Shown: in pieces, positions 10,079-36,771 of the stretch
Layout: every line of letters starts with the position of its first letter
Position numbering within the stretch: position 1 is the first letter of the stretch
Assembly: GCA_028287505.1 (NCBI GenBank)
Contig: JAQBPN010000017.1
Coordinates: 1-41,580 of the forward strand
Direction: 5' to 3'
DNA: 41,580 nt
From: Fibrobacterota bacterium
Lineage (GTDB): Bacteria; Fibrobacterota; Fibrobacteria; UBA11236
The notes under the pieces: model-generated
Told to the model about the DNA's origin: nothing
Databases searched by the model: none
Seen by the model: only the letters and a program-made list of their open reading frames with translations
Program-made: the position numbers and the translations under genes

Positions 10079-10173
10079 TTGCGAATCCAACCCGGCTGGA
10101 ATCCTGCCAAATCGGCAAGACCGGCTTCCGGGACCCTCGTCTGATTCTACTTGGTGGAGACGCGGCGTTTTAA

Positions 10174-22143: not shown

Positions 22144-22970
22144 GGCTTCTCCTCTTGCCGATGGCTCAGGGGAATCATGCTCACCGTCAATTGATAGACC
22201 CGCTCCGGATTCTCGTCCAGGCTGACCATATCCGCCAAGTGCGCGCGGAAGTTGCGGACTTTCTTGACCACCCGCTCGAAAGTGGCCTTGGACACTCCCA
22301 TGGTGGAAGAGGAGATCATGCGTTCATCGGCCCGGCAACGCTCGAAGGCTTCGCTGGCCAATTGCATCATGCGCATCTGGTAACGGATGACCTGGAAATC
22401 CTGTACCCCGGGGCCCGTGGTCACCACCGGATCCACCTGGAGGTACCGGCCCTTTTCCTTTTTCAGGAAGCCCAGTTCCAGCAACAGCTTGACGGAGGCT
22501 TCGGCCTTGGCGGCCGGAATGGCGGGGTTCAGCATCTTTCCCAGGCGGACGTAATCTTCGCCGAAATCCGACATGGTGACCAGTTCCCGGATGACGCAAT
22601 GGTGCCATTCCGCGAAGTATTCCATCTGATCGGTCTTGATGCGGGGCAGGTTGCGGTGCCGCTGGAGGGAAATCAGCTTGTCGAAATAGACGCTCTTCTC
22701 GTCCGCGCTCTTGGCCTGGTTGAAGAACACCAGATGTTCGAAATACTCCGCTTCCTTGTCCTTGAGCTTGAGCGCGACGCAGGTCTTGAGGATGGTCTTC
22801 TTGCTCAGGTTGCGCTTGCCCTCGATCACGAACTTGAAATAGGGGGCGGAATTGATGCCCGCCTTTTCCGCCAGGAACCGGTAGGAAAAGCCCGGATGCA
22901 CGGCCTTATTCCGCTCGTAGTGGTCCTTGATGAATTGCCGATAATCGGAATAAGAGTAGATGTCGCTCAT
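22140..22970 (-). CDS. TIGR02147-family putative transcriptional regulator
   Basis: 276 residues, the typical family length. It opens with IYSYSDYRQFIKDHYERNK and continues with FSYRFLAEKAGINSAPYFKF and VIEGKRNLSKKTI, the helix-turn-helix-like half. The DUF4423-type C-terminal half follows, with WHHCVIRELVTMSDF, a KLLLELGFLKKEKGRYL wing-like segment, and a final ISSSTMGVSKATFERVVKKV region. Known only as a presumed cytoplasmic regulator family. It is the first gene of a GTGA-coupled pair with the lipoprotein at 20179, so the two are very likely produced and act together. A perfect GTTTAC palindrome is about 70 bases upstream of its start and may be its own operator. Confidence 0.9.
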   Translation of the reverse strand: MSDIYSYSDYRQFIKDHYERNKAVHPGFSYRFLAEKAGINSAPYFKFVIEGKRNLSKKTILKTCVALKLKDKEAEYFEHLVFFNQAKSADEKSVYFDKLISLQRHRNLPRIKTDQMEYFAEWHHCVIRELVTMSDFGEDYVRLGKMLNPAIPAAKAEASVKLLLELGFLKKEKGRYLQVDPVVTTGPGVQDFQVIRYQMRMMQLASEAFERCRADERMISSSTMGVSKATFERVVKKVRNFRAHLADMVSLDENPERVYQLTVSMIPLSHRQEEKP

Positions 22971-23041
22971 GATACCGGCCTGAGGCCGTGGCTAGAATGT
23001 ACTCCATGGGGGGCGGAACCGCATCGCCAATCAGGGGGGTG

Positions 23042-23061
23042 CCGTTTACTTTTGTAAACGG
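23042..23061. promoter_or_regulatory. Palindromic candidate operator upstream of the TIGR02147/lipoprotein operon
   Basis: Arms CCGTTTAC and GTAAACGG with a TTTT spacer form a perfect 8-base inverted repeat. The core is shared with 20129-20146 and, with mismatches, 35759-35776. It lies about 70 bases upstream of ATG 22970, consistent with an operator. The binding protein is unknown; the adjacent TIGR02147 protein is the simplest candidate. Confidence 0.55.
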
Positions 23062-23163
23062 ATTGCTCCCCGTCTGCAGGGGTCTTTTGGGGATTTTGTC
23101 CCTCATTCCCTCGCAATTTTGTAAACAGAGGATCAAACTATCCCCACTGTGGAGAACGCAGCT

Positions 23164-23192
23164 AGACTCCCTTCTTAAAGGGATTCGAGTCT
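23164..23192. terminator. Bulged hairpin at the left edge of the AT-rich island
   Basis: AGACT plus CCCTT pair with AAGGG and AGTCT across a CTTA loop, with a five-base bulge on one side, giving a ten-pair stem. It lies about 100 bases past the end of the island's three-gene operon. It could end that transcript, though the following T-run is weak in either direction. Confidence 0.35.
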
Positions 23193-23291
23193 GAAGGTCA
23201 AGACCATCATCGCCCTTATTGAAATGAGTTCAATCTACACATGCCTTCTCCCTGGCATTCAACAAATACTGCCTATCGGACAGGGCCGAAA

Positions 23292-23792
23292 TTACGAATA
23301 TTTCCAAATCCATCTTTCCCGTTCTTCCGATGTTTTAATGTCTTCCCACAAAATATATGGTCGATTTTTATAGTCGATGCCCCGAATGATTTTGAACTTC
23401 CCTCGGCACTTTCCTTCAGGGTACCGAATTAGGTTTATTCCTTTTTTGTCAACCATTGTTTTTAAATAGCCTTCATAATTAATCGGAAAGAACCAGGCTT
23501 CAGAAAGAATGCCATTATAAAATTTCAATCTCAAATTACCTGCACTACCAAGATCTTCCCATTGAAACTCTATAGCAAGAATATCGAATCTTGGGCGTCG
23601 ATCCCCTTGAGCCAAATGATGATCTTCAACTACCTGATACTTGGACTGATCCAACCCAAGTTTTTTTGAAACCTCTTCAAACGTTGACTGGGGCTGAAGA
23701 TCGGAAATCCAATATTCCGGAAACTTTTTGGAGCAGGCGGATAAAAAAACCAAAAATAATGTAAACCCAAGAAGCCGAAAATTAGCCCTCAT
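23292..23792 (-). CDS. Small lipoprotein, candidate immunity protein for the RHS toxin
   Basis: 166 residues with a lipoprotein signal (MRANFRLLGFTLFLVFLSAC, Cys20 in the lipobox LSAC). The mature part has no recognised family. It is mixed alpha/beta with FEEVSKKLGLDQSKYQVVED and a hydrophobic strand LRLKFYNGILSEAWFFP; the alternation faintly recalls small BamE-like folds, which I cannot confirm. The ATG overlaps the stop of the RHS gene (ATGA at 23789-23792), so it is co-translated with the toxin-like protein. Small genes immediately downstream of polymorphic toxins usually encode immunity proteins, and a lipoprotein would protect in the periplasm. That function is inferred from position only. 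Codon and base use is AT-richer than in flanking genes, like the RHS gene. Confidence 0.7.
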   Translation of the reverse strand: MRANFRLLGFTLFLVFLSACSKKFPEYWISDLQPQSTFEEVSKKLGLDQSKYQVVEDHHLAQGDRRPRFDILAIEFQWEDLGSAGNLRLKFYNGILSEAWFFPINYEGYLKTMVDKKGINLIRYPEGKCRGKFKIIRGIDYKNRPYILWEDIKTSEERERWIWKYS

Positions 23793-26700
23793 TGAATAAC
23801 CTCAAGTCCGCCACCCGCGTAGCTATCCATGCACATTTGTTGACAGCTCCTTGCTCCTGCCGATTTGCCAGCTTTCCGTCCTTCCTTATTATTGTGCTCA
23901 TCCATTTTGCGTTCTTTGCAGGTTTGGCCTTTAGCATCACCGGCATTTTCATGATTCTCACCGGCGGTTGCAGCGTTATCTTCTCCCATATCTTGCGTCA
24001 TAAGACATGACCATATGCAATGTCTCATTGCATCTTGCGGACCATCTGATTCACCTTCATAACCCATTCTTTTGGCAGACTTACTGGCAATTGCTGCATC
24101 AAATCCAGCAGAAGCTGCACCAGAGAGTCCAATATCCTTGGAGTCCTGGGAAAACTCTCCAGCATTATCCTCAGCTTTTCCAAACCAATCATAGAGACCT
24201 AATGGGTCCATAAAATTAATTGGATTACCGTGGACGTAACCATAAAGATTCATTCCTCCTAGTTCCTCAATTGGATCCCTGGAGCTCCACCCTCCCAAAA
24301 GAGCATTATAAACTCTATACTTGGCAAAACTTAACCCACTAACCGAATGTACAAAGTATCCTGCGAAACCAAAATCAGCATCTTGAGCACCAGAGACTTT
24401 CGTTTTTACCCCATATGGATCATAGGCATAACGGGCGACCACACTACCTAAAGAATCGGTCATTTCTAATATGCTTCCGAGATGGTCCTTTGTATAAAAA
24501 TATTTGCTGGTTCCAATTTTTACCCCATATCCGAAGTATCTCTGCAAAATGGTGCCTCCCGTCGAATCTCTTTCCTCAGCAATTAAATTCCCTGTCCACA
24601 AATACTTTTTCTTCGAGATAACCGTACCGCTACTTTTCTCGATAATTTCCACTCGTCGGTTCAATCCATCATAGAAGAATTCACTTCGTAGGCCTCCATT
24701 GACAATTGCAGTTAACCGATTTTCTGCATCCCACTCATAGGTCCGCATCCCGTCATCGGTTAAGTTTCCGACATCATCGTAGGTAAAGCTCTTGGACGTT
24801 CCGGAAATGGTCAGTCTATAACGGTTTGTGATGGAGTTGTTCGAGTAGTCCCGGGCCTCAATCGTGGCCGTGTCCGTACCACTACTCTGGCCCAGGAATC
24901 CATCGAATTCATGGCTTGAGGACACGGGAACAGATTGACCGTTGATGGTGATTGTCGCAGCTTCGCTAACTGTTCCTTTAAAACGGGTGTTTCCTCCGGC
25001 CTGCTGTGAAGAGATCTGGTTCAGGTCGTTGTAGCTGAAACTATTTACTGTACTATCTTGCAGGCTGCTTAGCCTATTGCCAGATTTGTCATAGCTATAG
25101 GCAAAATGGGTCAAGATGGGATTCCCCCCGCTCGCGCTTCGGACTACATCTCCCAGCAACTGGTTCACAGGATCGTGGGTGAACGTTTGGGTCGAGGCCA
25201 CCGCCGAATCGGATTGCTGGGTCCATGTCTGGATTTGGCTCTCTGCATCATAAGTGTAGCCGGACTTGGAAAGTTGGGCAAGCGAAGGCAAAAGGTTTTT
25301 GATCTCCTGCAAGAGAAAATCCCCGGTAGAAGTGAAATAGCTGTATTTGGTTTTTTGCCCATTTGGGTAAATCAACGAATCCATCCTGCTGGTCGCCCCC
25401 ACAAATTTGTATGCAAATGTACCCAGCGCATTCGTCGAAGACTTTACGCGTCCCAGATTATCATAAGTGTAAGAAACCGAAACCCCATTGATCGAACGTG
25501 ATGCCACACGTCCCAGGGAATCATAGGTGAAAATCAGGGAGTCATTGGCCCAAGGACCATCCACACTTTTCAATTGTCCTGCGCCCAAGGAAGGGCTTCC
25601 AGAAACGGGGTAGTACCTATAAGAAGTTGTTCCCTGACCATCGGCCATACCGAGAAGCCTGTTATAGGTGGAGTCATAGGTAAAACTGACAGTTGGCGTA
25701 CTCACAATCGCGTCCATATAGCTGGTTTGAGCGAGATTGTCATCCACGTTGTATTGGTAATCGGTTTTTTGATCCAAGGCATCAGTAAGCCGTTTCAATC
25801 GCCCGCTGGCAGGCTCATATTCATATTGCACTTTCTTTCCGTCCGCATACACTTTTTCCTTAACGCGGCCTTGAACGTCTCTTTTCCAAGTAGTGGACTT
25901 GCCCATGGGGTCGGTTTGACTTGCAAGGTGGCCGCAACTGCACCATTCAAGATTGGTTGTTCTTCCGAGGGCATCCTGGATGACCGTAGGCTGCCTGAGC
26001 GCATTATGAAGAGTGGTAGTCCATCTTCCCAAGCGATCGCGGTTCCTTTCCACATCTAATCTGTTATAGACAATCTCCTCGTAGGTACTGTCGGGATAAT
26101 GCACCTTGATCGGACGATTCAAAGAGTCGTAATCCGTGGTCAAAGCGTATCCATCATTTTGGGTCACCGTTCGCACCCGACCAAATACGTCATAAGCGAA
26201 TTTTGTTGTATCCCCGGACACAGCTCTCGTTATCCGGATCAAATATCCCAGACTGTCATAGGAGTAGGTGGTGATTTCCCCGCGAGGATTGGTGGATGTG
26301 AGTACTTGCCCGGATCCATTGTAGGTAAGAGAAGTAAGCTGGCCGGAAGCATCGGTTACGGTTAGCGGTGAATGCAGGGAGTCGTAAGTGATGGTGTCCA
26401 GTAACTCATTCACTCCTCCTGTTTGCTGACGAATGGAAACCAAGTCGATATTGTTGGAGTCATAGGCATAAGCTGTTATTCGTTTTGAAGGATCCGTATA
26501 TTTTGTGATCTTCCCAATGCTGTTATATTCATATTGTATGAGTTGAGTAGCGCTGTCGTCTAATACGCGGCCAATTTTTGTGGGCCTGTTGAGTACCCCA
26601 TCTGTAATTTGAAGGTATGTGTCCTGGTTCTGGTAATTGTAATATGTCCGCCTTTCCAAAGGTTTCTTGATACTCGCGAATATATTGCTTGCGACGCTTA

Positions 26701-28813
26701 AGCTGGTTGAACGTATCCATTGATAAACAACTGCGTTTTTAATATCGCCGACGCCTTCCATCATAGCCTTTTTATCCCAAAAAATACTGTATGGCTCATG
26801 GCCAACCATGCTGGTGCTGACAAGCATGCTATCGGGAAAGGGTGCGCCATCATTTATAAATGCATCATGATGCCTGTATTCCAACCTTTCTCGTTGGCCC
26901 AAAGGATCCCGGCCTTCCAACCATCTTCCATCAGAGATACTACCTCCAAGAAAATGAGTGGTACCGTATGGAGTGATCATGGAGTTGATGAAGTCCCCAT
27001 CGCCATAGGTGAACGAAGAACTGAGACCGGCCATATCCGTGATGGATTCAAGCTGCCCATCATTGGTGTAGGTCAAGGCCGCCGTTCGTCCGAAAGGATC
27101 CGTCACTTCGGTGATTTTCAAGGAATCACTACCTAAACCGTAGGATATGGTCGTTACCTGGCCTAATGCGTCGGTTACCGTGGTTATTCGCAATGCGCCA
27201 TCGTAAGAAAACGAAAGAGTCTGGCCCTTGGGATCAATAATTTGCGAAAGGAATATCTTCCTCGGAAAGGATATCTCCCCATTTGGAACGTCGAATATTT
27301 CCTCAGCTCCGTTTGGCAGCCTCCGTTCATAACGGATCGGCGAAGAGGAAACTCGTACCAGCACAGCTTGAGACTGGATCTGCGGAGCATAGCTGGATGT
27401 CACGGTATCGAAATCCGAGTAGACCTCCGTTCCCCCTCCCTGGACAAATAGATTCGCATCTGCCGTGAGATAATCCGGATCATCGGTCACATAGGATAGC
27501 CAATCAAGGGTCCATTTATTCCCAAGATTGGAATAATTGAATATATCCGGCTGCTTGGCCTCTCTTTGATTGTACGTGATTCTGAAGTTGACACCCGGGC
27601 CACGAGGAGGGTCGTAGGCCAAAGGAATATCGATGATGTTAAGACTTGCTAGCATAGTGTGGAATCTATATGTGGGCATGGCTATGGATCCACCTGGACA
27701 GCCATCACCGCCGGTTGTGTTATCCGATGGCGTAGTAGAGTTAGGATCACTTGAAGACGTGCTTCCTTTCCCCCATACATTTCCCGCTTCTTTTTCATCT
27801 ACCGCTCGCCACCCTTTGGGGAGCTTTTGGGTTGGCACCAAGAAATAACCACTGGCTTCCATATCCAACGTTTGCTGGCTAATCCACCTGTCATCACCAA
27901 AGGTTGGATCCTGGATATGGTAGGCCCCATGTTCAAGAGCAATAATGGCCGCATAATGTCCCACCTTCCAGTTCACTACAGCTGGGAAAAGCACAGGAGC
28001 ATTAACATCTCGTTTCGCCAATTGAAGAGAAAGCCCCACCTGCTTAGATAGCTTATAAACGTTTAACAATGAAACGCCCTTTGTGGTGGATTTCGAAGCG
28101 TAAATCTTATCCTGTAATTTTATATCGGATTTTTTTTTGAATAGCAAACGGGCCAACGCATATGGGCCACACTTAAACGCATCTTGCGGCTTATTTTTCA
28201 TCAGCCATAGACCTTCTTTGGCGCCTTGGATTTTCTCAGTAGCCGCGCCACGAACGTTTCGATTTTGAACCTCCTTCAGCAACGGTTCCAATCGTTCTAG
28301 TCTTCCTAACTTAGCATTCATTATTGCCAGTTCACCTACGCTACGATCTCCTATGGCCTTTCCCAGGACATCAGTCCGGCTTTTGGATAGCCGCCAAGCC
28401 TCTTCCCAAACATTGAGTGCCTTGGAGTAGTAACCGGTTCTGTAATACATTGTTCCCAGATTACACAACAAAGACGCATTCCAGGGTGAATTCGGGTAAG
28501 AAGAGATGAAGTTTTCGAGAGGCTGGGTTTCATGGCTACTGGAGTGGGCCATCATCCCATTGATAGCAATAGCCAATGCCTGATTTTCCCGTTGAGTCGG
28601 AACTCCCAGAGGCACTAGGGGCTCGTCAAACAGCCTTGCGCTTGAAATTGCCCGCGAATCCGATTCTGTTAAAGCAGATTGTTTGGAGTCCGCGTTAACT
28701 TTTCCCACCAGCACCATTAAAAGGAGGAAAAAGAATGCCATCTGAAATGCAAATGGACTCATGCTCGAACCACAGTCGGTCTTCAACACCGGGAGATTGA
28801 ATTTAGGATTCAT
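23789..28813 (-). CDS. Sec-exported RHS-repeat protein with N-terminal C39-like peptidase domain and C-terminal toxin-like tip
   Basis: 1,674 residues from ATG 28813, with AAGGTG seven bases upstream. A signal peptide ends at about residue 41 (VGKVNA). Residues about 95-190 look TPR-like (NLGTMYYRTGYYSKALNVW). A C39-type papain-fold domain follows, with FKCGPYALARLL (Cys215), WKVGHYAAIIA (His286) and YHIQDPTFGD (Asp302). From about residue 390 the RHS shell begins, with many YDSLGR-type repeats, ending in the core motif RDPIEELGGMNLYGY and DPLGL (1536-1540). The last about 134 residues form a variable tip with conserved-looking RHCIW (His1598), ENHEN (His1621) and MDEHNNKEGR (Asp1638, His1640). 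This resembles a putative-toxin domain family, DUF6973-like as far as I recall. Export by a signal peptide points to surface display or release rather than type VI delivery. It lies between the RCC1 gene and the lipoprotein gene. Confidence 0.9.
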   Translation of the reverse strand: MNPKFNLPVLKTDCGSSMSPFAFQMAFFFLLLMVLVGKVNADSKQSALTESDSRAISSARLFDEPLVPLGVPTQRENQALAIAINGMMAHSSSHETQPLENFISSYPNSPWNASLLCNLGTMYYRTGYYSKALNVWEEAWRLSKSRTDVLGKAIGDRSVGELAIMNAKLGRLERLEPLLKEVQNRNVRGAATEKIQGAKEGLWLMKNKPQDAFKCGPYALARLLFKKKSDIKLQDKIYASKSTTKGVSLLNVYKLSKQVGLSLQLAKRDVNAPVLFPAVVNWKVGHYAAIIALEHGAYHIQDPTFGDDRWISQQTLDMEASGYFLVPTQKLPKGWRAVDEKEAGNVWGKGSTSSSDPNSTTPSDNTTGGDGCPGGSIAMPTYRFHTMLASLNIIDIPLAYDPPRGPGVNFRITYNQREAKQPDIFNYSNLGNKWTLDWLSYVTDDPDYLTADANLFVQGGGTEVYSDFDTVTSSYAPQIQSQAVLVRVSSSPIRYERRLPNGAEEIFDVPNGEISFPRKIFLSQIIDPKGQTLSFSYDGALRITTVTDALGQVTTISYGLGSDSLKITEVTDPFGRTAALTYTNDGQLESITDMAGLSSSFTYGDGDFINSMITPYGTTHFLGGSISDGRWLEGRDPLGQRERLEYRHHDAFINDGAPFPDSMLVSTSMVGHEPYSIFWDKKAMMEGVGDIKNAVVYQWIRSTSLSVASNIFASIKKPLERRTYYNYQNQDTYLQITDGVLNRPTKIGRVLDDSATQLIQYEYNSIGKITKYTDPSKRITAYAYDSNNIDLVSIRQQTGGVNELLDTITYDSLHSPLTVTDASGQLTSLTYNGSGQVLTSTNPRGEITTYSYDSLGYLIRITRAVSGDTTKFAYDVFGRVRTVTQNDGYALTTDYDSLNRPIKVHYPDSTYEEIVYNRLDVERNRDRLGRWTTTLHNALRQPTVIQDALGRTTNLEWCSCGHLASQTDPMGKSTTWKRDVQGRVKEKVYADGKKVQYEYEPASGRLKRLTDALDQKTDYQYNVDDNLAQTSYMDAIVSTPTVSFTYDSTYNRLLGMADGQGTTSYRYYPVSGSPSLGAGQLKSVDGPWANDSLIFTYDSLGRVASRSINGVSVSYTYDNLGRVKSSTNALGTFAYKFVGATSRMDSLIYPNGQKTKYSYFTSTGDFLLQEIKNLLPSLAQLSKSGYTYDAESQIQTWTQQSDSAVASTQTFTHDPVNQLLGDVVRSASGGNPILTHFAYSYDKSGNRLSSLQDSTVNSFSYNDLNQISSQQAGGNTRFKGTVSEAATITINGQSVPVSSSHEFDGFLGQSSGTDTATIEARDYSNNSITNRYRLTISGTSKSFTYDDVGNLTDDGMRTYEWDAENRLTAIVNGGLRSEFFYDGLNRRVEIIEKSSGTVISKKKYLWTGNLIAEERDSTGGTILQRYFGYGVKIGTSKYFYTKDHLGSILEMTDSLGSVVARYAYDPYGVKTKVSGAQDADFGFAGYFVHSVSGLSFAKYRVYNALLGGWSSRDPIEELGGMNLYGYVHGNPINFMDPLGLYDWFGKAEDNAGEFSQDSKDIGLSGAASAGFDAAIASKSAKRMGYEGESDGPQDAMRHCIWSCLMTQDMGEDNAATAGENHENAGDAKGQTCKERKMDEHNNKEGRKAGKSAGARSCQQMCMDSYAGGGLEVIQ

Positions 28814-28885
28814 GTTTTCACCTTTTGGACTGTATTTCCATTACTTTGCATGTCGATTCGATGCCTGGTACCAACAACTTCTGCG

Positions 28886-31800
28886 TCAAGGAAGCAGAAC
28901 TGCGTCCGTCGGGAGAATCAAGTCAATTGTGGGAGCGGCCACATCTCCTGGAGTCGAACCAGGGGCGGTTGAACGGGAGGGATCGAGAGGGAAATCATCC
29001 ACATCGTCAGTCACCCCATCCCCGTCGGTATCGTTTGATAATGGATTGGTTCCATCGATGATTTCCTGTGCGTTGCTGATCCCGTCCCCATCCATATCAT
29101 CTTCTGTGACGCTGAGTCCGGATTTGTAAGCGGCTCCGTCTAGAATTCCGTCCCCGTTGGAATCCCGGTTATTTGGGTCGGAACCAATGACGGCTTCAAC
29201 GGCATTTGAAAGGCCATCATTGTCCGTATCTACGTCCGTTCCAAATTGCGCGATCTTCGTGGGTACTAATACGTCGGTATTGCTTCCACTTCCGACCTGC
29301 CCATAAAAATTGTATCCCCAACCCCATTCGGTCCCATCATTTTGAACAGCGATTACGAAATCCCCATATGCCTTTACGGAAACAATTCCCGTCAAACCAA
29401 CGGCTTGAACCGGCGAAAGCCTTGATGTTCCTGTACCATCCCCTAGCTGTCCATATGTATTCTGCCCGACCGTCCAAACGGTGCCGTCACGCTTGGCAAC
29501 GACCGTAAAATTCTGACCGGCCGCAACACTGATTACATCCGTCAAGGTGTCTATTTGCTTGGGATCCGAGAGCCCCCCGCCGCTTGTTCCATCTCCGCAT
29601 TGCCCGTAATAGTTGTATCCCCAGCACCAGACCGTTCCATCCGCTTTGAGTGCCACTCCGTGGCCGAATCCTCCATCTATGGCAACAACATTGTAGAGTC
29701 CGCCCAACTGGACCGGATCAAGATGGGTTATGTTATCACCCAGTTGCTGATAAGGACTGGCCCCCCATCCCCAGACTGTTCCGTCCCCTTTAATCGTAAA
29801 GACGAAGTCATTTCCGGCACCAATTGCTACTGCATTGCTCATGCCCGATTCCACAGGCTCGAGACGACTGTCGGTTGTACCATCCCCAAGCTGCCCCGAA
29901 GCATTGCTACCCCAGGACCAAACCGTTCCATCGTTTTTAAGAGCGAGGCTGAATGCGTTACCGGCTGACACCCTTTGCACTCCCGTGAGGATATGGGATT
30001 GCACCGGAACGGAATCAATATCGAGGGTGGAATCGCCCAATTGCCCATAAGTGTTGTTACCCCAGGCCCAGACTGTACTATCATTTTTCAACGCAAGATT
30101 ATGATAGCTCCCCGCCGTAATGTCCTTAAAAAGGTTCGCCGAGTTTAATGGCCCAGGCTCCCATCGTTCAAGAACATTGTGAACCCCAAGCTGGCAGTAG
30201 TCATTGTTCCCCCATGTCCATATTTGCCCGGCTGTTCCCAACGCCAAACCGTGGCTATATCCTCCGAGAGCGATACCTCCGATATTGTAAAAACCCGCTT
30301 TCGTAAAGCTTGGGTCGAGTCCGGATTTGAATGCCTTTACCCTTATAGTTGTAATTGGATCTGTAACGGATATGCTACCCCCGTCGCTTACATTGGTGCT
30401 GGCCAGAGTCGGTTCCGACCCATCTGTGGTATACCGGATACTGGCTCCTGATGTGGCACAATTCACAATAAGGGTTTGGCCGCTGAGATAAAAACCGCCT
30501 TCTTTGCTAAGAGTTGGAGTGGCTACACGTGGATTGAAACCGAATTGAACAACCTGTACCGGCGAATCCCTCTCGATCTTGGTGCCATCCCCAAGCTCCC
30601 CATAGTAATTGTCCCCCCAGCTCCAAATAGTGCCATCACTTTTTATGGCGAAGACGGAATTCCCGAAAGCGGCTACAAGGATGATGGAGGTCAATCCTGA
30701 CACTTGAACCGGCGAATGCTGGTACATAGTCGTGCCATCACCTAGTTGCCCGTAATCATTGTTGCCAAATGTCCAAACCGTGCCATCACTCTTAACAACA
30801 ACTGTGAAATTCTCACCCGCAGCTATGCTGACAACGTTGGTTAAGCCCGGTACCCGTTTGGGAATCGAAAACGCATTGCCGCTAGTACCATCCCCGCATT
30901 GCCCGTAATAGTTGTACCCCCAGCACCATACGGTTTGGTCATCCCTAAGAGCGATAGTGTGACCAAATCCGGCACGGGCCGAAACAACCCTGCTTATCCC
31001 CGGTATTTGCCAAGGGTCGAGATGAGTAGCATTGTCCCCCAGCTGCCCATAGGCATTCCCTCCCCAGCCCCATAATGTCCCGTCGTTCTTGATGGCCAAT
31101 GCGAAGTCTCTACCCCCTGCGATGAAAACAGCGTCCGCCATCCCGCTCTGCACTGGGGAAGTTTCATCCGTAGTTGAACCGTCCCCTAATTGGCCGGAAC
31201 CGTTGTAACCCCAGGACCATACCGTTCCATCGCTCTCAAGCGCCAGACTGAAGTAATTTCCGCCGGCCACGCGCTTTACGCCACTTAATCCGGCAACTTC
31301 GATGGGTAATGAGGTATCTGAGCTGGTGGCGTTTCCCAACTGTCCATAAACATTGTAACCCCAGGACCACACCGTACTATCGCTTTTGACTGCAAGCGAA
31401 TGTTCATTTCCGGCAGCTAAATCCAGCAAATCGCTTATAGTTGTCAACGGATAGGGGAATAACCTGCTTCCCATGTGCCCGCTTCCCAATTCGCCGTAGT
31501 AATTGATTCCCCACGTTTGGACCTTTCCGTCGGGCGTCAGGGCCAAAGCATGGTTCGTGCCCGCTACTATGTTCCATCCGATTTGAAACAGGGCGCTACG
31601 CGGATAGCTTGGCAAGAAATAGTCCCGGAAGGCCTTAACCCGGAGATTCCAGATCCCCGTAGGAATGGTTATACTAGCCCCCGACGCCACGGAATAGTCG
31701 CTGGTCGTGGGTTCGGAACCATCGACTGTATAGTACATAGACACCCCAGCCGTGGGACAAGTTACGGTGACCACTTGAGAATCCGGGTAATACCCCCCGT

Positions 31801-33244
31801 CTCGGTCCAAGGTCGGAGTCAGAACTCGTTGCGCGAATTCAATGGATTCGATTCGGCTGGGTGAATTGCGATCCGTAGTCGATCCATCTCCCACCTGGCC
31901 GCCAAAGTTGCTTCCCCAACTCCATACGGTGCCGTTTCGTGCGAGCAAAAGGGTATGGTCCCCACCGCTCAAAGCAGCACCGGCAGGCACGCTACCTACT
32001 TGGATGGGCGCTATTTGATCCGTGTTCCCCGCGTCTCCCAACTGGCCGTAACCATCGCTGCCCCAAGCCCATATTGATCCATCTTGCTTTATCGCCATGG
32101 AGTGGTTTCTGCCGGCGGCAATTGCGATTACACCCGCCAGGAATTCAACTTGGACAGGAACATTGCGGGTTGTTACAGAGCTATCGCCCAATTGCCCGTA
32201 GGTATTGTCGCCCCATGCCCATACCGTGCTATCGGATTTGAGCGCCAAGACATGGTTCAGACCGGCTGCAATCGCAGTAACGCCCGATAAGGACGTACCT
32301 TGGATTGGTACCAGAGAAGAACTATTGAAGCCATCTCCCATTTGGCCATAAGTCCCAGATCCCCATGTCCATACCGTACTATCCTTTTTTAAAGCAACGG
32401 AATGATACTGTCCGGCCGCGATGTCTACAATTCCAGTCAAAATGGTGGTTTGGACCGGCGGGGAGGCAGGCGTAGAATTTCCATCGCCAAGATTTCCGAA
32501 ATAATTGGAGCCCCATCCCCAGACCGTGCTATCGTTTTTCAAGGCTAGGTTAAAGGATTCTCCAGCCATGATTTTCACGATCCCGTTCAATGAATCGACT
32601 TGGACGGGCGAATCACGTTCTGTAGTTGTACCGTCGCCCAATTGTTGGTTCAGGTTCAACCCCCATGCCCATACCGTCCCATCCGTCTTTACAGCTACCG
32701 AATGCGACCCACCAGCCGAGACGTCAGCCACGGTGGAAATGGCCGTGACCAATATGGGAGATGGGACATCGGGACCCGACCCAAGACCTGTTTGACCATA
32801 ATAGTTGTAGCCCCAAGCCCATAAAGAACCATCGGGGAAGAGGGCAAAACTGTGGTTGTATCCCGCGGCTACTTTTCCCAAGAGGAGGTAATCCTCAACC
32901 GAGGTTGAGCCCCAACTACTAGAAAGGTAAGCCGTAGCGTTGACGGTTTTCGACTTGTTTATCAGAATAGAATCGCCTGATGAAATGCTAGGAGAGCCGG
33001 TTGTAGGCGCAGTTCCATCGACGGTATAGTAGATGGTAGCCCCTACAGTCGGACACGTGAATGTTACGTAAATCGAAGATCTGAAGATCCCGCTGGCTGG
33101 GTAAAGGCCGACATCGGAGATTTGCGCGTGGGAGAGACCGCAAAAGAACAATGCCGGAAATATCCAGCTTGTACGCAGCTTGACCTTCCGATGGGAAAGT
33201 GAAATGAAGAAGCCCTTAAATTTTTCCGATGGAAAAAACATCAT
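28886..33244 (-). CDS. Exported protein with three seven-bladed RCC1 propellers, three chitobiase-type domains and calcium-binding-type repeats
   Basis: 1,452 residues; ATG 33244 has AAAGGAG just upstream. The signal peptide ends near residue 41 (FFCGLSHA). I count 21 RCC1-type blades with WxWGxNxYGQxGDG cores, in three sets of seven. Each set is preceded by an 80-90-residue beta-sandwich of the CHB_HEX_C/FN3-like type, with YYTVDGTAPTT, YYTVDGSEPTT and RYTTDGSEPTL. Approximate positions: sandwich 43-120, propeller 121-470, sandwich 472-560, propeller 561-903, sandwich 904-995, propeller 996-1335. Then come thrombospondin-3-like DxDxDG repeats (1337-1430: DTDNDGLSN, DSNGDGILD, DMDGDGISN, DTDGDGVTD). 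RCC1 propellers bind proteins or ligands; no catalytic residues are expected. The protein ends abruptly at PTIDLILPTDAVLLP. The RHS gene starts 72 bases downstream, so they are probably co-transcribed. Base composition is AT-rich. Confidence 0.9.
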   Translation of the reverse strand: MMFFPSEKFKGFFISLSHRKVKLRTSWIFPALFFCGLSHAQISDVGLYPASGIFRSSIYVTFTCPTVGATIYYTVDGTAPTTGSPSISSGDSILINKSKTVNATAYLSSSWGSTSVEDYLLLGKVAAGYNHSFALFPDGSLWAWGYNYYGQTGLGSGPDVPSPILVTAISTVADVSAGGSHSVAVKTDGTVWAWGLNLNQQLGDGTTTERDSPVQVDSLNGIVKIMAGESFNLALKNDSTVWGWGSNYFGNLGDGNSTPASPPVQTTILTGIVDIAAGQYHSVALKKDSTVWTWGSGTYGQMGDGFNSSSLVPIQGTSLSGVTAIAAGLNHVLALKSDSTVWAWGDNTYGQLGDSSVTTRNVPVQVEFLAGVIAIAAGRNHSMAIKQDGSIWAWGSDGYGQLGDAGNTDQIAPIQVGSVPAGAALSGGDHTLLLARNGTVWSWGSNFGGQVGDGSTTDRNSPSRIESIEFAQRVLTPTLDRDGGYYPDSQVVTVTCPTAGVSMYYTVDGSEPTTSDYSVASGASITIPTGIWNLRVKAFRDYFLPSYPRSALFQIGWNIVAGTNHALALTPDGKVQTWGINYYGELGSGHMGSRLFPYPLTTISDLLDLAAGNEHSLAVKSDSTVWSWGYNVYGQLGNATSSDTSLPIEVAGLSGVKRVAGGNYFSLALESDGTVWSWGYNGSGQLGDGSTTDETSPVQSGMADAVFIAGGRDFALAIKNDGTLWGWGGNAYGQLGDNATHLDPWQIPGISRVVSARAGFGHTIALRDDQTVWCWGYNYYGQCGDGTSGNAFSIPKRVPGLTNVVSIAAGENFTVVVKSDGTVWTFGNNDYGQLGDGTTMYQHSPVQVSGLTSIILVAAFGNSVFAIKSDGTIWSWGDNYYGELGDGTKIERDSPVQVVQFGFNPRVATPTLSKEGGFYLSGQTLIVNCATSGASIRYTTDGSEPTLASTNVSDGGSISVTDPITTIRVKAFKSGLDPSFTKAGFYNIGGIALGGYSHGLALGTAGQIWTWGNNDYCQLGVHNVLERWEPGPLNSANLFKDITAGSYHNLALKNDSTVWAWGNNTYGQLGDSTLDIDSVPVQSHILTGVQRVSAGNAFSLALKNDGTVWSWGSNASGQLGDGTTDSRLEPVESGMSNAVAIGAGNDFVFTIKGDGTVWGWGASPYQQLGDNITHLDPVQLGGLYNVVAIDGGFGHGVALKADGTVWCWGYNYYGQCGDGTSGGGLSDPKQIDTLTDVISVAAGQNFTVVAKRDGTVWTVGQNTYGQLGDGTGTSRLSPVQAVGLTGIVSVKAYGDFVIAVQNDGTEWGWGYNFYGQVGSGSNTDVLVPTKIAQFGTDVDTDNDGLSNAVEAVIGSDPNNRDSNGDGILDGAAYKSGLSVTEDDMDGDGISNAQEIIDGTNPLSNDTDGDGVTDDVDDFPLDPSRSTAPGSTPGDVAAPTIDLILPTDAVLLP

Positions 33245-33815
33245 GAACTCCTTTGTCCTGGGGCTATTCTCTTTTCAAATCCGCACTATAAAGATATATG
33301 TGACGATATGCTTAATATTCTGGAGCATTCAGGGGATTTTCGCGGCGCCGACCCATGGAAGCAAATATTAATCGATACGATTTTTACATTCTCAACTTTT
33401 CGATGAAATGATTTTCGATTTCGCGCACAATCTGTACACAGGGCTTGAAGGACATGATGCGCCATTTGCCGTCTGGGCGCGAGATGATTCTTTATTGTTT
33501 CAATGTTGCGACAATGGATTTTACAACTTCTATGGTAGTACGTAAGCTGTCTTACTGATACAAGGAATATCGAAGCCGGGACAGAACGTGTGAGATAGGC
33601 AATCCCATATGCATCAGGTGGTCGAAATATGTACGTGGTTTGGCGCAGCTGGAATTGAAATTGCGGAACGCCCATCCCTGAATGGTCTCACGAATGAAAC
33701 CGCTACGATTGGAAAGCAGATTTATCTTCGGTTATCCCGAAGGCTTTAAAACGCCGAGGACTTGAGCGTCGCGGCGGAAAAGCAGGATCTTCGAAAACAG
33801 GAAAAGTGTGGCCGG
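33245..33815. other. Intergenic region at the right edge of the AT-rich island
   Basis: About 570 bases between the RCC1 gene and the second dehydrogenase-like gene, both on the minus strand. The composition is AT-rich to about 33700 and then GC-rich. A possible -10 (TATAGT, read on the minus strand about 50 bases before ATG 33244) may serve the RCC1 operon, but no good -35 is placed. A 129-codon open frame at 33286-33675 has no RBS, no family pattern and atypical composition, so I do not call it. No tRNA, integrase or flanking direct repeat was found. Confidence 0.5.
33726..33742. terminator. Hairpin downstream of the second dehydrogenase-like gene
   Basis: CTTCGG and CCGAAG arms with a five-base loop form a perfect six-pair stem about 75 bases past the stop at 33816. 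On the minus strand it is followed by ATAAAT rather than a T-run, so termination is only possible. Confidence 0.3.
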
Positions 33816-35567
33816 TTACGGAGCGGTCAGATAGCGCGCCCGCAGCACGCCATTCCCAAGTTCCCGGGGAACCTCGATGGCCTGCGCTTCGCCGGCATCC
33901 GCGCGCACCTTGCGGAACACGGATTTGCCGGTCAGGTCGAACAACTCGACGCCGCGAAAGCCCGCGGGGATCCGCAGCATGCCGTCCAGGATGACCGGGG
34001 ACAGCAGACGGTTTTCCCGGGAAGGCTCCCGCAGCGCGGAGGTGGGCAGGTGCGGCACCGGAGTAAGCGGGCGGCAGGTTCCCGTGTATTCCAGGCGGCC
34101 GATCTTGGTCTGGGGCGAGGTGGACGCCCAGCCGGCATAGTTCAGGTAGTACAGCGCGCCCTCGGGACCGAGGGTCAATTCCAGTACCCGGTACTGGCCC
34201 GGGATGCCGCCTGGGAAGTTCTGCAAATCGGTCACCTGGGTCAGGGCGTTGTCCACGCTGGCCACTTTGATCCAATCGTCCGCGAATTCGGCGACGAGCC
34301 ATTTGCCGTCGAAATGGGGAGGCAGCTTCTTGGTGGAGGGATTGCTGCCGTCATAATGATAGACGGGGCCCGCGATGGCGGCCGTACCGCCGCCTTGGGG
34401 CAGCAAGGGCGTGATGTTGGCCTGCTTGCTTTCCGGCAGGATGGCGGGATGGGCCGGAGGCAGTTTCTGCACGCCCGTGTTGTTGACGGAAGTGTTCATG
34501 GGGGAATTCACGTCCCAGGTCTGGTTGAGGCTCTTGTCGTTCACGTAGTCCCACTTCGTATAGGCTTTGTTGGCGCCCACGAAATAGGGCCAGCCCATGA
34601 ATCCCGGTTCCTTGATCAAGTTGAACTCATCGTTGCCGGCGGGGCCGCGATCGGCCTGGACCTGTCCCGCGTCCGGACCGATGTCCCCCCACGCGACCCA
34701 CCCCGTATAGGGATCGACGCTCAGGGAATAGGGGTTACGGTGGCCCATGGTATAGATCTCCGGCAGGATCTTGGCCTGATCGGCGGCGGCGTAATAGCCC
34801 TTGGCGGTATAGAAATCCCGCAGGTTCCCGGCGGGGATGGTGTAGGTCTTGCCGGCTCCGGGCGCGGGGGTTTCCGCGTCGGTGAAGGCGATGGGTTTGA
34901 TGCGCAGGATCTTGCCGCGCCAATCGTTGGTATTGGCCGTGCCCTGCTGGTTGTCGTTGATGATGTCGCGTTCGTCCGTGACCGAGAAGTTGTCCGCGTT
35001 GTTCTTGTTGTTGCCGGTGGAAACGTAGAGGATGCCGAATGCGTCCCAGCCCATCGCCCCGCCCTGGTGGCAGCAGGTTTCGTACGTCCACGGCATGTCG
35101 ATCAACGGCTTGACCGTGGCCATGTCCACGGTCCAGTCCGCCTTGACGTGCACGCGCGCCAGGCGCAGCACGTGGGGGTTGGGGGGCGTCAGCATCAGAT
35201 AGAGCCAGCGGTTGGCGGCGAAATCCGGATCGGGGGTCACGTAGCGCAGCCCCAATTCATTGCCGTTATTGATGGCGAACTTGCCCATCAGCTTGACCGA
35301 GCCGTCCAAATCGATCATCTTCAGGTTGCCGGAGGCGCGCTCGGTGAAGAACACGCGGCCGTCCTTGCCCACGGTCATTCCGATCGGTTCATTGAGGGTG
35401 GCGTCGTTCGCCTGGCTGGCGAGCACCACGTCCTTGAAATCCGTGGCGGCCAAATCGGGGCATCCCGGATAGGAGAATGCTCCTTGGGCCGGTTTCGCGA
35501 TCCAGGAAAGTCCCGCCGCGGCCAACCCGATCAAAAGTTTTGCGTTTTTCATATTGCCACTTTTCAT
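33816..35567 (-). CDS. Exported PQQ-dependent sugar dehydrogenase-like beta-propeller (GSDH family), second copy
   Basis: 583 residues from ATG 35567, or 578 from ATG 35552. Both starts lie in a perfect 15-base tandem duplication, each preceded by GTGGC. A frame extension of 118 codons upstream is rejected because it crosses the divergent esterase promoter and has no signal at its start. The signal peptide (MKNAKLLIGLAAAGLSWIAK) ends near PAQGA. Propeller motifs include VFFTERASGNLKMIDL, ELGLRYVTPDPDF, CCHQGGAMGWDAFGILYVST, WRGKILRIKPIAF, YTMGHRNPYSLSVDP and GPEGALYYLNYAG. An N-terminal pattern YPGCPDLAATDFK matches WPGCADVTDADFK in the paralogue at 13575. The C-terminal tail has ELFDLTGKSVFRK (D at about 544). 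Probably a periplasmic or surface sugar-oxidising propeller, or a non-catalytic sugar-binding relative. A CCHQGG insert is specific to this copy. Confidence 0.87.
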   Translation of the reverse strand: MKSGNMKNAKLLIGLAAAGLSWIAKPAQGAFSYPGCPDLAATDFKDVVLASQANDATLNEPIGMTVGKDGRVFFTERASGNLKMIDLDGSVKLMGKFAINNGNELGLRYVTPDPDFAANRWLYLMLTPPNPHVLRLARVHVKADWTVDMATVKPLIDMPWTYETCCHQGGAMGWDAFGILYVSTGNNKNNADNFSVTDERDIINDNQQGTANTNDWRGKILRIKPIAFTDAETPAPGAGKTYTIPAGNLRDFYTAKGYYAAADQAKILPEIYTMGHRNPYSLSVDPYTGWVAWGDIGPDAGQVQADRGPAGNDEFNLIKEPGFMGWPYFVGANKAYTKWDYVNDKSLNQTWDVNSPMNTSVNNTGVQKLPPAHPAILPESKQANITPLLPQGGGTAAIAGPVYHYDGSNPSTKKLPPHFDGKWLVAEFADDWIKVASVDNALTQVTDLQNFPGGIPGQYRVLELTLGPEGALYYLNYAGWASTSPQTKIGRLEYTGTCRPLTPVPHLPTSALREPSRENRLLSPVILDGMLRIPAGFRGVELFDLTGKSVFRKVRADAGEAQAIEVPRELGNGVLRARYLTAP

Positions 35568-35575
35568 ATTGCCAC
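35546..35575 (-). repeat. Perfect tandem 15-base duplication at the start of the second dehydrogenase-like gene
   Basis: GTGGCAATATGAAAA is repeated twice head to tail on the minus strand. Each unit carries an ATG, in frame five codons apart, so either copy can serve as start. Confidence 0.85.
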
Positions 35576-35758
35576 CATTTCCCGGCGGATTCCCTTCCGC
35601 CTTCTTGACGACGCCGGCACCACTCCCGCCGCCCTCCGTATTCCGTATTCCGTATTCTGAAGGTAGGGCACCGGCCGTGAAAATCAAGCGGACGATGGCC
35701 GGATTGCATTGGAATACCCAGAGGCGCCGATTTTTTACCTGAAATCCTGCCGAAATCG

Positions 35759-35776
35759 CGTTTACTTTTGGAAACA
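35759..35776. promoter_or_regulatory. Degenerate copy of the GTTTAC palindrome upstream of the esterase gene
   Basis: CGTTTAC, a TTTT spacer, then GGAAACA in place of GTAAACG, with two mismatches in the right arm. It is 81 bases upstream of ATG 35857, and also upstream of the divergent dehydrogenase-like gene. Confidence 0.35.
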
Positions 35777-35856
35777 CGGCCTTCCCACGCTGAAATTCCC
35801 CGGACATTCCCGACCGTATATTGACCCCGCAGCCATCTGCGAAACCGGGGGGTTCA

Positions 35857-36771
35857 ATGACAAAGATATTTTCCATGCTGGTTGTGATTCTGTCCAGCCT
35901 GGCGGGAGCGCAAACTTCCAAATTCCTGATTGGCGGTCAAACCGCCAAAGACGGCCTGCGCATTCCCTACCGTTTGTTCGTTCCCAGGAATTACGATCCC
36001 AAAAAAGCCTATCCCCTGGTCCTGGCCTTGCATGGCGCGGGAGAGCGCGGCACCGACGATTCCATTCAGCTCACCACCTACCGTCTGGCCACCCTCTGGG
36101 CCGTGGACAGCAACCAGGCCAAATACCCCAGCTTCATCCTCGCGCCCCAATGCCCGCTCTATCCCGCCGTCTGGGTGAACACGCCCTTCGGCGCGGGGAC
36201 TTACAATCAGGACAAAGTGCCGTTGGCGCCGCCCCTGCGCGCGGTGGTGGAAATCCTGGACTCGATGCTGATCAAGTACCACATCGATACCAACCGCGTG
36301 TACGTGGCCGGACTCTCCATGGGCGGATACGCGACATGGGATATCCTCATGCGCTATCCCAAGCGCTTCGCCGCCGCCATTCCCATTTGCGGCGCGGGCG
36401 ATACCGCCAAGGCGGCCCTCTTGAAGGCCATACCCATCTGGGCATTCCATGGGGATGCGGACAAGACCGTGCCCGTAGAGGGTTCGCGGCAGATGATCGC
36501 GGCGATCCGGAAAGCGGGAGGCGCTCCGGTCTATACGGAATATCCTGGAGTGGATCATGGCTCCTGGGGTCCGGCCTTGCAGGAACCCAAGCTTGCGGAT
36601 TGGCTGTTCGCGCAAAAGCGGCCCGCCCCTACCGCGATCCGTTCCGCCCAATCCCCGCGCGCGCATCCGGAGCGGTCGCGCACCGGCGGGATCATTCCGC
36701 CGGGCGGAGGATTCAGGATGCCGGGGGCCAGTGTGGACGGCCTGGGCAGGGAAGCGGCTCGGGTAAAATAG
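35857..36771 (+). CDS. Exported carbohydrate esterase / phospholipase-carboxylesterase-like alpha/beta hydrolase
   Basis: 304 residues from ATG 35857 with a G-rich RBS five bases upstream; an in-frame TTG at 35821 is not needed. The signal peptide (MTKIFSMLVVILSSLAGA) is short. The domain resembles predicted peptidase/esterase proteins (COG4099-like, CE1-related): PYRLFVPRNYDPKKAYPLVL, LHGAGERGTD, the nucleophile elbow GLSMGG (Ser154), acid GDADKTVP (Asp202) and base VDHGSW (His234). Such enzymes remove acyl or feruloyl groups from plant polysaccharides; the exact ester is unknown. Residues beyond 250 are a Pro/Arg/Gly-rich linker ending in VDGLGREAARVK, a short version of the D-x-x-G-R tail (D294). 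It is divergent from the dehydrogenase-like gene and is followed after 216 bases by the SGNH gene on the same strand. Confidence 0.85.
   Translation: MTKIFSMLVVILSSLAGAQTSKFLIGGQTAKDGLRIPYRLFVPRNYDPKKAYPLVLALHGAGERGTDDSIQLTTYRLATLWAVDSNQAKYPSFILAPQCPLYPAVWVNTPFGAGTYNQDKVPLAPPLRAVVEILDSMLIKYHIDTNRVYVAGLSMGGYATWDILMRYPKRFAAAIPICGAGDTAKAALLKAIPIWAFHGDADKTVPVEGSRQMIAAIRKAGGAPVYTEYPGVDHGSWGPALQEPKLADWLFAQKRPAPTAIRSAQSPRAHPERSRTGGIIPPGGGFRMPGASVDGLGREAARVK

What the first reader, a model, noticed from the sequence alone, without database searches (positions are those of the whole stretch)
28886..33244. Three complete seven-bladed RCC1 propellers in one chain, each with its own chitobiase-type sandwich
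Seen: 21 blades in three sets of seven, each set preceded by an xYTxDGxxPTx beta-sandwich. Propellers 2 and 3 match blade for blade (both have WCWGYNYYGQCGDGTSG as fifth blade, followed by a GxNFTVV segment), so a whole sandwich-plus-propeller unit was duplicated. The DNA is also repetitive there (about 29595-29650 versus 30890-30945). Such a regular beads-on-a-string layout in an exported bacterial protein is unusual.
Basis: seen in the sequence. Interest (0 to 1): 0.6.

Follow-up and report, generated by a model that had tools for sequence, protein, structure and literature searches.

The report
Triple-propeller partner of an RHS protein
A bacterial exported protein really does carry three seven-bladed propellers in a row, which is ordinary for its family, but its tail appears to be the missing strand of a domain inside a neighbouring toxin-like RHS protein, so the two are probably built to lock together.

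Summary
In detail: 21 RCC1 blades in three sets of seven, each set behind a chitobiase-type sandwich, with AlphaFold2 giving 7+7+7 four-stranded blades. Unit 2/3 duplication is real and old, not an assembly artefact. The layout is not unusual: bacterial relatives carry two to seven propellers per chain, and eukaryotic HERC2 carries three.

The more interesting result lies at the protein's C-terminus and in the next gene. The protein ends in two TSP3 repeats plus a short tail, (P)PxIxLxxPxxAxLxP. Fifteen loci with this cassette, in the window's phylum, Acidobacteriota, Planctomycetota and Myxococcota, were all followed by an RHS gene; seven of them were found from the cassette alone. The tail looks like the first strand of an Ig-like (Glucodextran_B) domain. 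The RHS partner carries the rest of that domain, without its first strand, inserted among its repeats: 12 of 12 assessable partnered RHS proteins, 0 of 10 complete unpartnered relatives. The bodies in front of the cassette are exchangeable (RCC1, PKD, F5/8C, beta-helix).

Best reading: the propeller chain docks on the RHS shell by donating a strand. The docking is inferred, not shown, and what the propellers bind is unknown.

The parts
28886..33244 (-). RCC1/CHB triple-propeller exported protein, 1452 aa
   Evidence: ORF; Pfam; AlphaFold2
33122..33244 (-). signal-peptide-like N-terminus (residues 1-41)
   Evidence: basic then hydrophobic stretch ending AQ, read from the sequence; no signal-peptide program available
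32873..33121 (-). chitobiase-type sandwich 1 (residues 42-124)
   Evidence: CHB_HEX_C_1 / Fn3_assoc
31835..32872 (-). propeller 1, 7 RCC1 blades (residues 125-470)
31577..31834 (-). sandwich 2 (residues 471-556)
30536..31576 (-). propeller 2, 7 blades (residues 557-903)
30281..30535 (-). sandwich 3 (residues 904-988)
29246..30280 (-). propeller 3, 7 blades (residues 989-1333); sister of propeller 2
28937..29245 (-). TSP3 repeats and DxFPLDP linker (residues 1334-1436), first part of the conserved C-terminal cassette
   Evidence: TSP3_bac E 8.5e-17; alignments over 15 partners
28889..28936 (-). tail APTIDLILPTDAVLLP (residues 1437-1452), candidate donor strand A of an Ig-like domain
   Evidence: matches the strand-A part of a full-length Ig-like HMM; ORF ends 9-20 residues after the motif in 15 of 15 partners
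23789..28813 (-). RHS protein, 1674 aa, own signal-like N-terminus, TPR-like region, C39 peptidase domain (residues 213-329), RHS repeats and core, DUF6973 tip
24800..24985 (-). Ig-like insert in the RHS protein (RHS residues 1277-1338), strands B-G without strand A
23292..23792 (-). 166 aa lipoprotein-like gene overlapping the RHS stop by 4 bp; candidate immunity gene
   Evidence: (weak YdcD match)
22501..34500 (.). low-GC island holding the three genes
   Evidence: GC 46-55% inside against 58-65% outside; GC3 0.53, 0.48 and 0.37 for the three genes against 0.74-0.82 in flanking genes

Best explanation
The triple-propeller protein is the exported partner of the RHS protein encoded right behind it. 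SHOWN by sequence: three sandwich-plus-propeller units, then two TSP3 repeats, then a C-terminal tail that looks like the first beta strand of an Ig-like domain; an RHS partner carrying the rest of that domain without its first strand; and strict linkage of the two features across four phyla, with the bodies in front of the cassette exchanged. INFERRED: both proteins are exported, the RHS repeats fold into a shell around its variable tip, and the tail of the partner inserts into the shell's incomplete Ig-like domain, completing it by strand donation and fixing the propeller chain to the shell. The TSP3 part would act as a calcium-stiffened spacer and the propellers and sandwiches as an outward binding or anchoring arm. 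MORE SPECULATIVE: the RHS tip (DUF6973) is an antibacterial toxin, the small lipoprotein gene is its immunity gene, and the arm decides what surface the shell meets.
For: Cassette and adjacency: 15 upstream partners end 9-20 residues after the (P)PxIxL motif and all are followed by RHS genes; gaps are short where measured (window 72 bp, L112 4-bp overlap, L157 3 bp, L170 12 bp, L169 20 bp, L186 2 bp, L187 18 bp). Seven of them (L186, L187, L259-L263) were found by searching only with the cassette, and RHS was then seen behind all seven. Complementarity: RHS inserts match positions 34-44 to 96 of a full-length Ig-like HMM; cassette tails match positions about 3-31. Pfam Glucodextran_B matches to the RHS inserts start near profile position 19-22, while most matches elsewhere in the same genomes start at position 1-5. 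Insert in 12 of 12 partnered RHS with that region available, 0 of 10 complete unpartnered C39-RHS. Exchangeable bodies: RCC1+CHB x9, PKD x2, F5/8C+CHB x1, pectinesterase/beta-helix x3. The RHS core ends in the PxxxxDPxGL motif (sequence NPINFMDPLGL), which PMC8765631 gives as the mark of the barrel end and autoproteolysis. RHS tips differ among homologues and a lipoprotein gene overlaps the RHS stop in the window and L170.
Against: The tail is about 16 residues and its HMM scores are low (0.4-8.0 bits); in the window protein it ranks third among all 16-residue windows, behind sandwich strands. Partnered RHS proteins need only three changes of label on the RHS tree and one origin is not ruled out, so 12/12 against 0/10 is not a set of independent cases. 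L261 and L262 are close relatives. The insert could draw its first strand from RHS sequence just before it. Three partnered RHS genes (L112, L171, L186) could not be checked for the insert because the contig ends or the frame is broken. No toxic activity is known for DUF6973 and no held paper mentions it.
Confidence: 0.6

Rival explanations
1. Fission relic: an ancestral single protein was split between the cassette and RHS, and the tail is a functionless leftover of an Ig-like domain.
For: The genes are adjacent with overlaps or gaps of a few bases; the tail resembles a domain's first strand.
Against: The rest of the domain is not at the RHS N-terminus but about 960-1660 residues into it, where a simple split cannot put it. 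Most RHS starts read have their own signal-like N-terminus. The tail has kept its motif and end point over 15 partners in four phyla while bodies changed.
Confidence: 0.12
2. Independent surface adhesin or polysaccharide-binding protein that merely lies next to RHS in a gene-rich island.
For: CHB-type sandwiches and propellers are common in exported bacterial binding proteins; many RCC1 multi-propeller genes have no RHS neighbour. An RCC1 repeat protein is found in Myxococcus outer-membrane vesicles (PMC4158809).
Against: All 15 cassette-bearing genes precede RHS, seven by prediction. Even in the unselected RCC1 set, 7 of about 93 loci have RHS within 1 kb downstream on the same strand against about 0.04 expected from RHS density (my arithmetic).
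Confidence: 0.15
3. Inhibitor or chaperone: the propellers bind and silence the C39 peptidase or RHS tip of the partner, as BLIP-II (same fold class) inhibits beta-lactamases.
For: Foldseek matches BLIP-II among RCC1-class propellers; co-transcription with the RHS gene is likely.
Against: Bodies are exchanged for PKD, F5/8C or beta-helix domains with the RHS kept, so a propeller-specific inhibitor is unlikely; L187 has the cassette and insert without a detected C39 region; a separate small lipoprotein gene sits where an immunity gene is expected.
Confidence: 0.07
4. One reading: just an exceptionally regular beads-on-a-string protein from a recent unit duplication.
For: Units and duplication are real.
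Against: The duplication is old, such layouts are common, and it does not account for the cassette, the RHS linkage or the low-GC island.
Confidence: 0.05

Closest known systems
RCC1-like domain proteins (RCC1, UVR8, HERC1/2; bacterial BLIP-II)
   Same: Seven-bladed RCC1-type propeller; best structural matches UVR8 (TM by target about 0.9, 32% identity), HERC2, RCC1, BLIP-II. HERC2 also carries three such domains.
   Different: Exported bacterial protein, each propeller preceded by a chitobiase-type sandwich, ending in TSP3 repeats and the tail; no ubiquitin-ligase or GTPase context.
Polymorphic RHS toxin systems (PMC3482391)
   Same: RHS repeats and core, PxxxxDPxGL motif, differing C-terminal tips, small gene overlapping the stop; peptidases and signal-peptide export are listed for such systems.
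   Different: A second exported repeat protein with a conserved tail is encoded just upstream; the passages found in that review do not describe such a partner, and its only 'RCC1' hit is a virus name.
Tc toxin B/C components and T6SS RhsA
   Same: RHS shell with its open end closed by another element: a propeller in TcB, a plug in RhsA (PMC8765631).
   Different: There the cap is part of the same chain; here propellers are on a separate protein and would be joined through a donated strand at an Ig-like insert near the C-terminal side of the repeats.
Donor-strand complementation in chaperone-usher pili (general knowledge)
   Same: An incomplete Ig-like fold completed by a strand from another protein.
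   Different: No usher or pilus genes seen; strand A rather than the G-type strand is missing; the tail is C-terminal, while the pilin donor extension is N-terminal; complementation is inferred, not shown.

Membership tests
RCC1-like domain (RLD) propeller | Seven RCC1 repeats forming one closed seven-bladed propeller | tested here: met
   21 PF00415 stretches; 7 blades in each of three predicted propellers
RCC1-like domain (RLD) propeller | Structural match to solved RLDs | tested here: met
   UVR8, HERC1/2, RCC1 top matches
RCC1 proper (Ran exchange factor) | Ran-exchange activity in the nucleus | not testable with these tools
   Exported bacterial protein; not claimed
Polymorphic RHS toxin system (the partner gene) | RHS/YD repeats plus RHS core | tested here: met
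   PF05593 x8, TIGR03696
Polymorphic RHS toxin system (the partner gene) | C-terminal tip differs between close homologues | tested here: met
   Tips differ among the homologues listed; only the window's is DUF6973
Polymorphic RHS toxin system (the partner gene) | Toxic tip and cognate immunity protein | not testable with these tools
   Overlapping lipoprotein gene is suggestive only
Donor-strand (split Ig domain) pair | Acceptor domain lacks a strand that the donor supplies in sequence | tested here: met
   Insert covers HMM 34-96, tail covers about 3-31
Donor-strand (split Ig domain) pair | Donor and acceptor co-occur | tested here: met
   12/12 partnered, 0/10 complete unpartnered; not phylogenetically independent
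Donor-strand (split Ig domain) pair | Physical complementation of the fold | not testable with these tools
   Needs complex modelling or experiment
Tc toxin B/C complex | SpvB/TcdB-type RHS protein with its own propeller, plus a TcA pore partner | tested here: not met
   Pfam scan of the RHS protein shows C39, RHS and DUF6973 (plus weak TPR) only

The most novel reading that the evidence does not exclude
A general docking system in exported RHS proteins: an Ig-like domain within the RHS repeats is made without its first strand and is completed by the C-terminal tail of a separately encoded, exchangeable arm protein (RCC1 propellers, PKD, F5/8C, beta-helix). This would be a plug-and-socket by which one shell type is given different arms.
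Probability: 0.5. Interest if true: 0.78.

Novelty: new variant of a known kind. Interest (0 to 1): 0.62.

Why it matters
Bacterial RCC1 multi-propeller proteins are abundant and largely without assigned function. The linkage gives one subfamily a partner and a testable contact site of about 16 residues. If the strand donation is real, it would show how exported RHS shells outside type VI secretion and Tc complexes can be given separate, swappable binding arms, and it yields a sequence mark (TSP3 cassette plus tail, and strand-less insert) for finding more such pairs.

Tried and rejected
(1) Assembly artefact: rejected (56% DNA identity of units 2/3, longest shared word 23 bases; same 3 x 7 layout in an orthologue). 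(2) Readthrough or frameshift fusion with RHS: rejected; the RCC1 stop lies 72 bp before the RHS start, the orthologue has a GTGA overlap, and the RHS proteins have their own signal-like starts. (3) C39 as the pairing mark: rejected, since many C39-RHS genes have no partner and L187 has the pair without a detected C39 region. (4) RCC1 as the pairing mark: rejected, since PKD, F5/8C and beta-helix bodies carry the same cassette. (5) The same cassette for RCC1-RHS neighbours in Bacillota and Calditrichales: not found; their RCC1 proteins end differently. (6) Literature for RCC1 with RHS partners, DUF6973 and RHS donor strands: nothing relevant in the held library. (7) A first HMM scan of the tails failed on an option clash and was repeated.
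Full report
WHAT IS THERE. The minus-strand ORF 28886-33244 encodes 1452 residues. Pfam reports 21 RCC1 repeats, three CHB_HEX_C_1 sandwiches and two TSP3_bac repeats. Blade starts are 48-51 residues apart in three runs of seven. Two AlphaFold2 models on shallow alignments of genus relatives cover the chain from residue 41 on (residues 41-990 with mean pLDDT 88.6, residues 470-1452 with 82.9) and show seven four-stranded blades in each propeller; one outer strand in propeller 2 is weak. Relative domain orientation is uncertain (pTM 0.66 and 0.59). Foldseek finds UVR8, HERC1/2, RCC1 and BLIP-II.

AGE AND KIN OF THE UNITS. Units 2 and 3 are 52% identical, against 40-42% with unit 1; propellers 2 and 3 are sisters with 100/99 support. 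The orthologue in genome G003 also has its propellers 2 and 3 as sisters (96/93), so either the duplication happened twice or gene conversion keeps the pair alike. Synonymous sites are near saturation and the longest shared DNA word is 23 bases: an old duplication, not an assembly fault. In two other genomes of the genus a different RCC1/CHB protein has seven units (L114, 4356 aa) and at least five (L113, contig end), paired by position between the species. In 80 loci from many phyla, chains with 14, 21 or more blades are common (that sample is biased towards long, similar chains). The layout is therefore ordinary for bacterial RCC1 proteins.

THE NEIGHBOUR. The next gene, 72 bp downstream, encodes a 1674-aa RHS protein with a TPR-like region, a C39 peptidase domain, RHS repeats, an RHS core and a DUF6973 tip; a 166-aa lipoprotein-like gene overlaps its stop by 4 bp. 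The three genes form a low-GC stretch (GC3 0.53, 0.48 and 0.37 against 0.74-0.82 in flanking genes), as expected of acquired DNA. In the G003 orthologue the RCC1 stop and RHS start overlap by 4 bp. RCC1 genes followed at once by RHS genes also turned up in Paenibacillus, Ruminiclostridium, other Clostridia, Calditrichales and Acidobacteria. With about 0.94 RHS cores per Mb in 40 of these genomes, about 0.04 such cases are expected among 93 loci and seven were seen (my arithmetic).

THE CASSETTE. Partners of the window type end in a conserved cassette of about 115 residues: TSP3 repeats, a DxFPLDP linker, then (P)PxIxLxxPxxAxLxP and stop. Searching Acidobacteriota with the RHS N-terminus gave 20 strong C39-RHS genes in 396 genomes; six have an upstream partner with the cassette, five of them RCC1 and one built of PKD domains. 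Searching with the cassette alone then gave two further Acidobacteriota loci, two in Planctomycetota and three in Myxococcota. All seven are followed by an RHS gene. With the window and its orthologue this makes 15 of 15. The bodies are RCC1+CHB in nine, PKD in two, F5/8C+CHB in one and pectinesterase/beta-helix in three.

THE SPLIT DOMAIN. The RHS partner carries an Ig-like insert of about 60 residues among its repeats (window RHS residues 1277-1338). Pfam calls it Glucodextran_B from profile position 19-22 on, while most such domains elsewhere in the same genomes start at position 1-5 and read D(R/T)TPPVITLTEPAEG... at their start. Against an HMM of those complete domains, the inserts cover positions 34-44 to 96 and the cassette tails cover about 3-31. 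The insert is present in 12 of 12 partnered RHS proteins in which the region can be read and in none of 10 complete unpartnered C39-RHS proteins. The RHS tree shows that partnered RHS proteins are clustered and that one origin is not ruled out, so these are not independent cases; the distant L187 pair, which has no detected C39 region, and the non-RCC1 bodies make inheritance by descent alone less likely.

HOW IT MOST LIKELY WORKS. RHS repeats form closed shells around their C-terminal tips in RhsA and Tc B/C proteins (PMC8765631). The window RHS has the PxxxxDPxGL motif that the same paper describes as marking the barrel end. I infer that the tail of the propeller protein inserts as the missing strand into the Ig-like insert on the RHS shell, fixing the propeller chain outside, with the TSP3 part as spacer. 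What the propellers and sandwiches bind is unknown; a surface glycan or protein is likely. That the tip is a toxin and the lipoprotein gene its immunity gene rests on the usual layout of such systems (PMC3482391), not on a test. A simple gene split does not account for the data, because the acceptor part lies about 960-1660 residues inside the RHS chain and not at its start.

LIMITS. Tail HMM scores are weak one by one; the case rests on position, recurrence and co-occurrence. L261 and L262 are near relatives. RHS genes of L112 and L171 run off their contigs and L186's frame is broken, so their inserts could not be read. Only openly licensed papers could be searched.

Noticed in passing
L022, L027, L037 (genome contigs): A separate RCC1-RHS pairing in Ruminiclostridium and Calditrichales: RCC1 proteins end in similar C-terminal sequences without the tail, and the following RHS proteins of L027 and L037 begin with a subtilisin-like domain (read from the sequence).
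   Followed up: partly
L114 and L113 (same genus): A paralogue with seven sandwich-propeller units in 4356 aa (at least five in L113), preceded by many Ig-like domains; an RHS core lies about 8 kb downstream in L114's genome.
   Followed up: partly
G000 contig C79 (L011): Second RCC1 locus of the window's genome: a 462-aa RCC1 protein and a 2525-aa protein in which propellers alternate with other repeats, next to an RHS gene.
   Followed up: partly
L119 (G004 contig C35): An RCC1 N-terminal fragment with a stop codon runs into the middle of an RHS gene that has the Ig-like insert: a likely deletion remnant of such a pair.
   Followed up: partly
L186: The RHS gene behind the cassette-bearing RCC1 gene is broken into overlapping frames, by decay or sequencing error.
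   Followed up: no
window 2-10090 (-): A 3363-aa ORF running off the contig edge with PA14, DUF2341 and many LamG-type domains.
   Followed up: no
window 33816-35921 (-): Glucose/sorbosone dehydrogenase-like (GSDH) gene just upstream of the island, with the GC3 of the host flank.
   Followed up: no
L035: Gammaproteobacterial C39-type RHS gene lying upstream of, not downstream of, an RCC1 gene with a TSP3 end but no tail.
   Followed up: no
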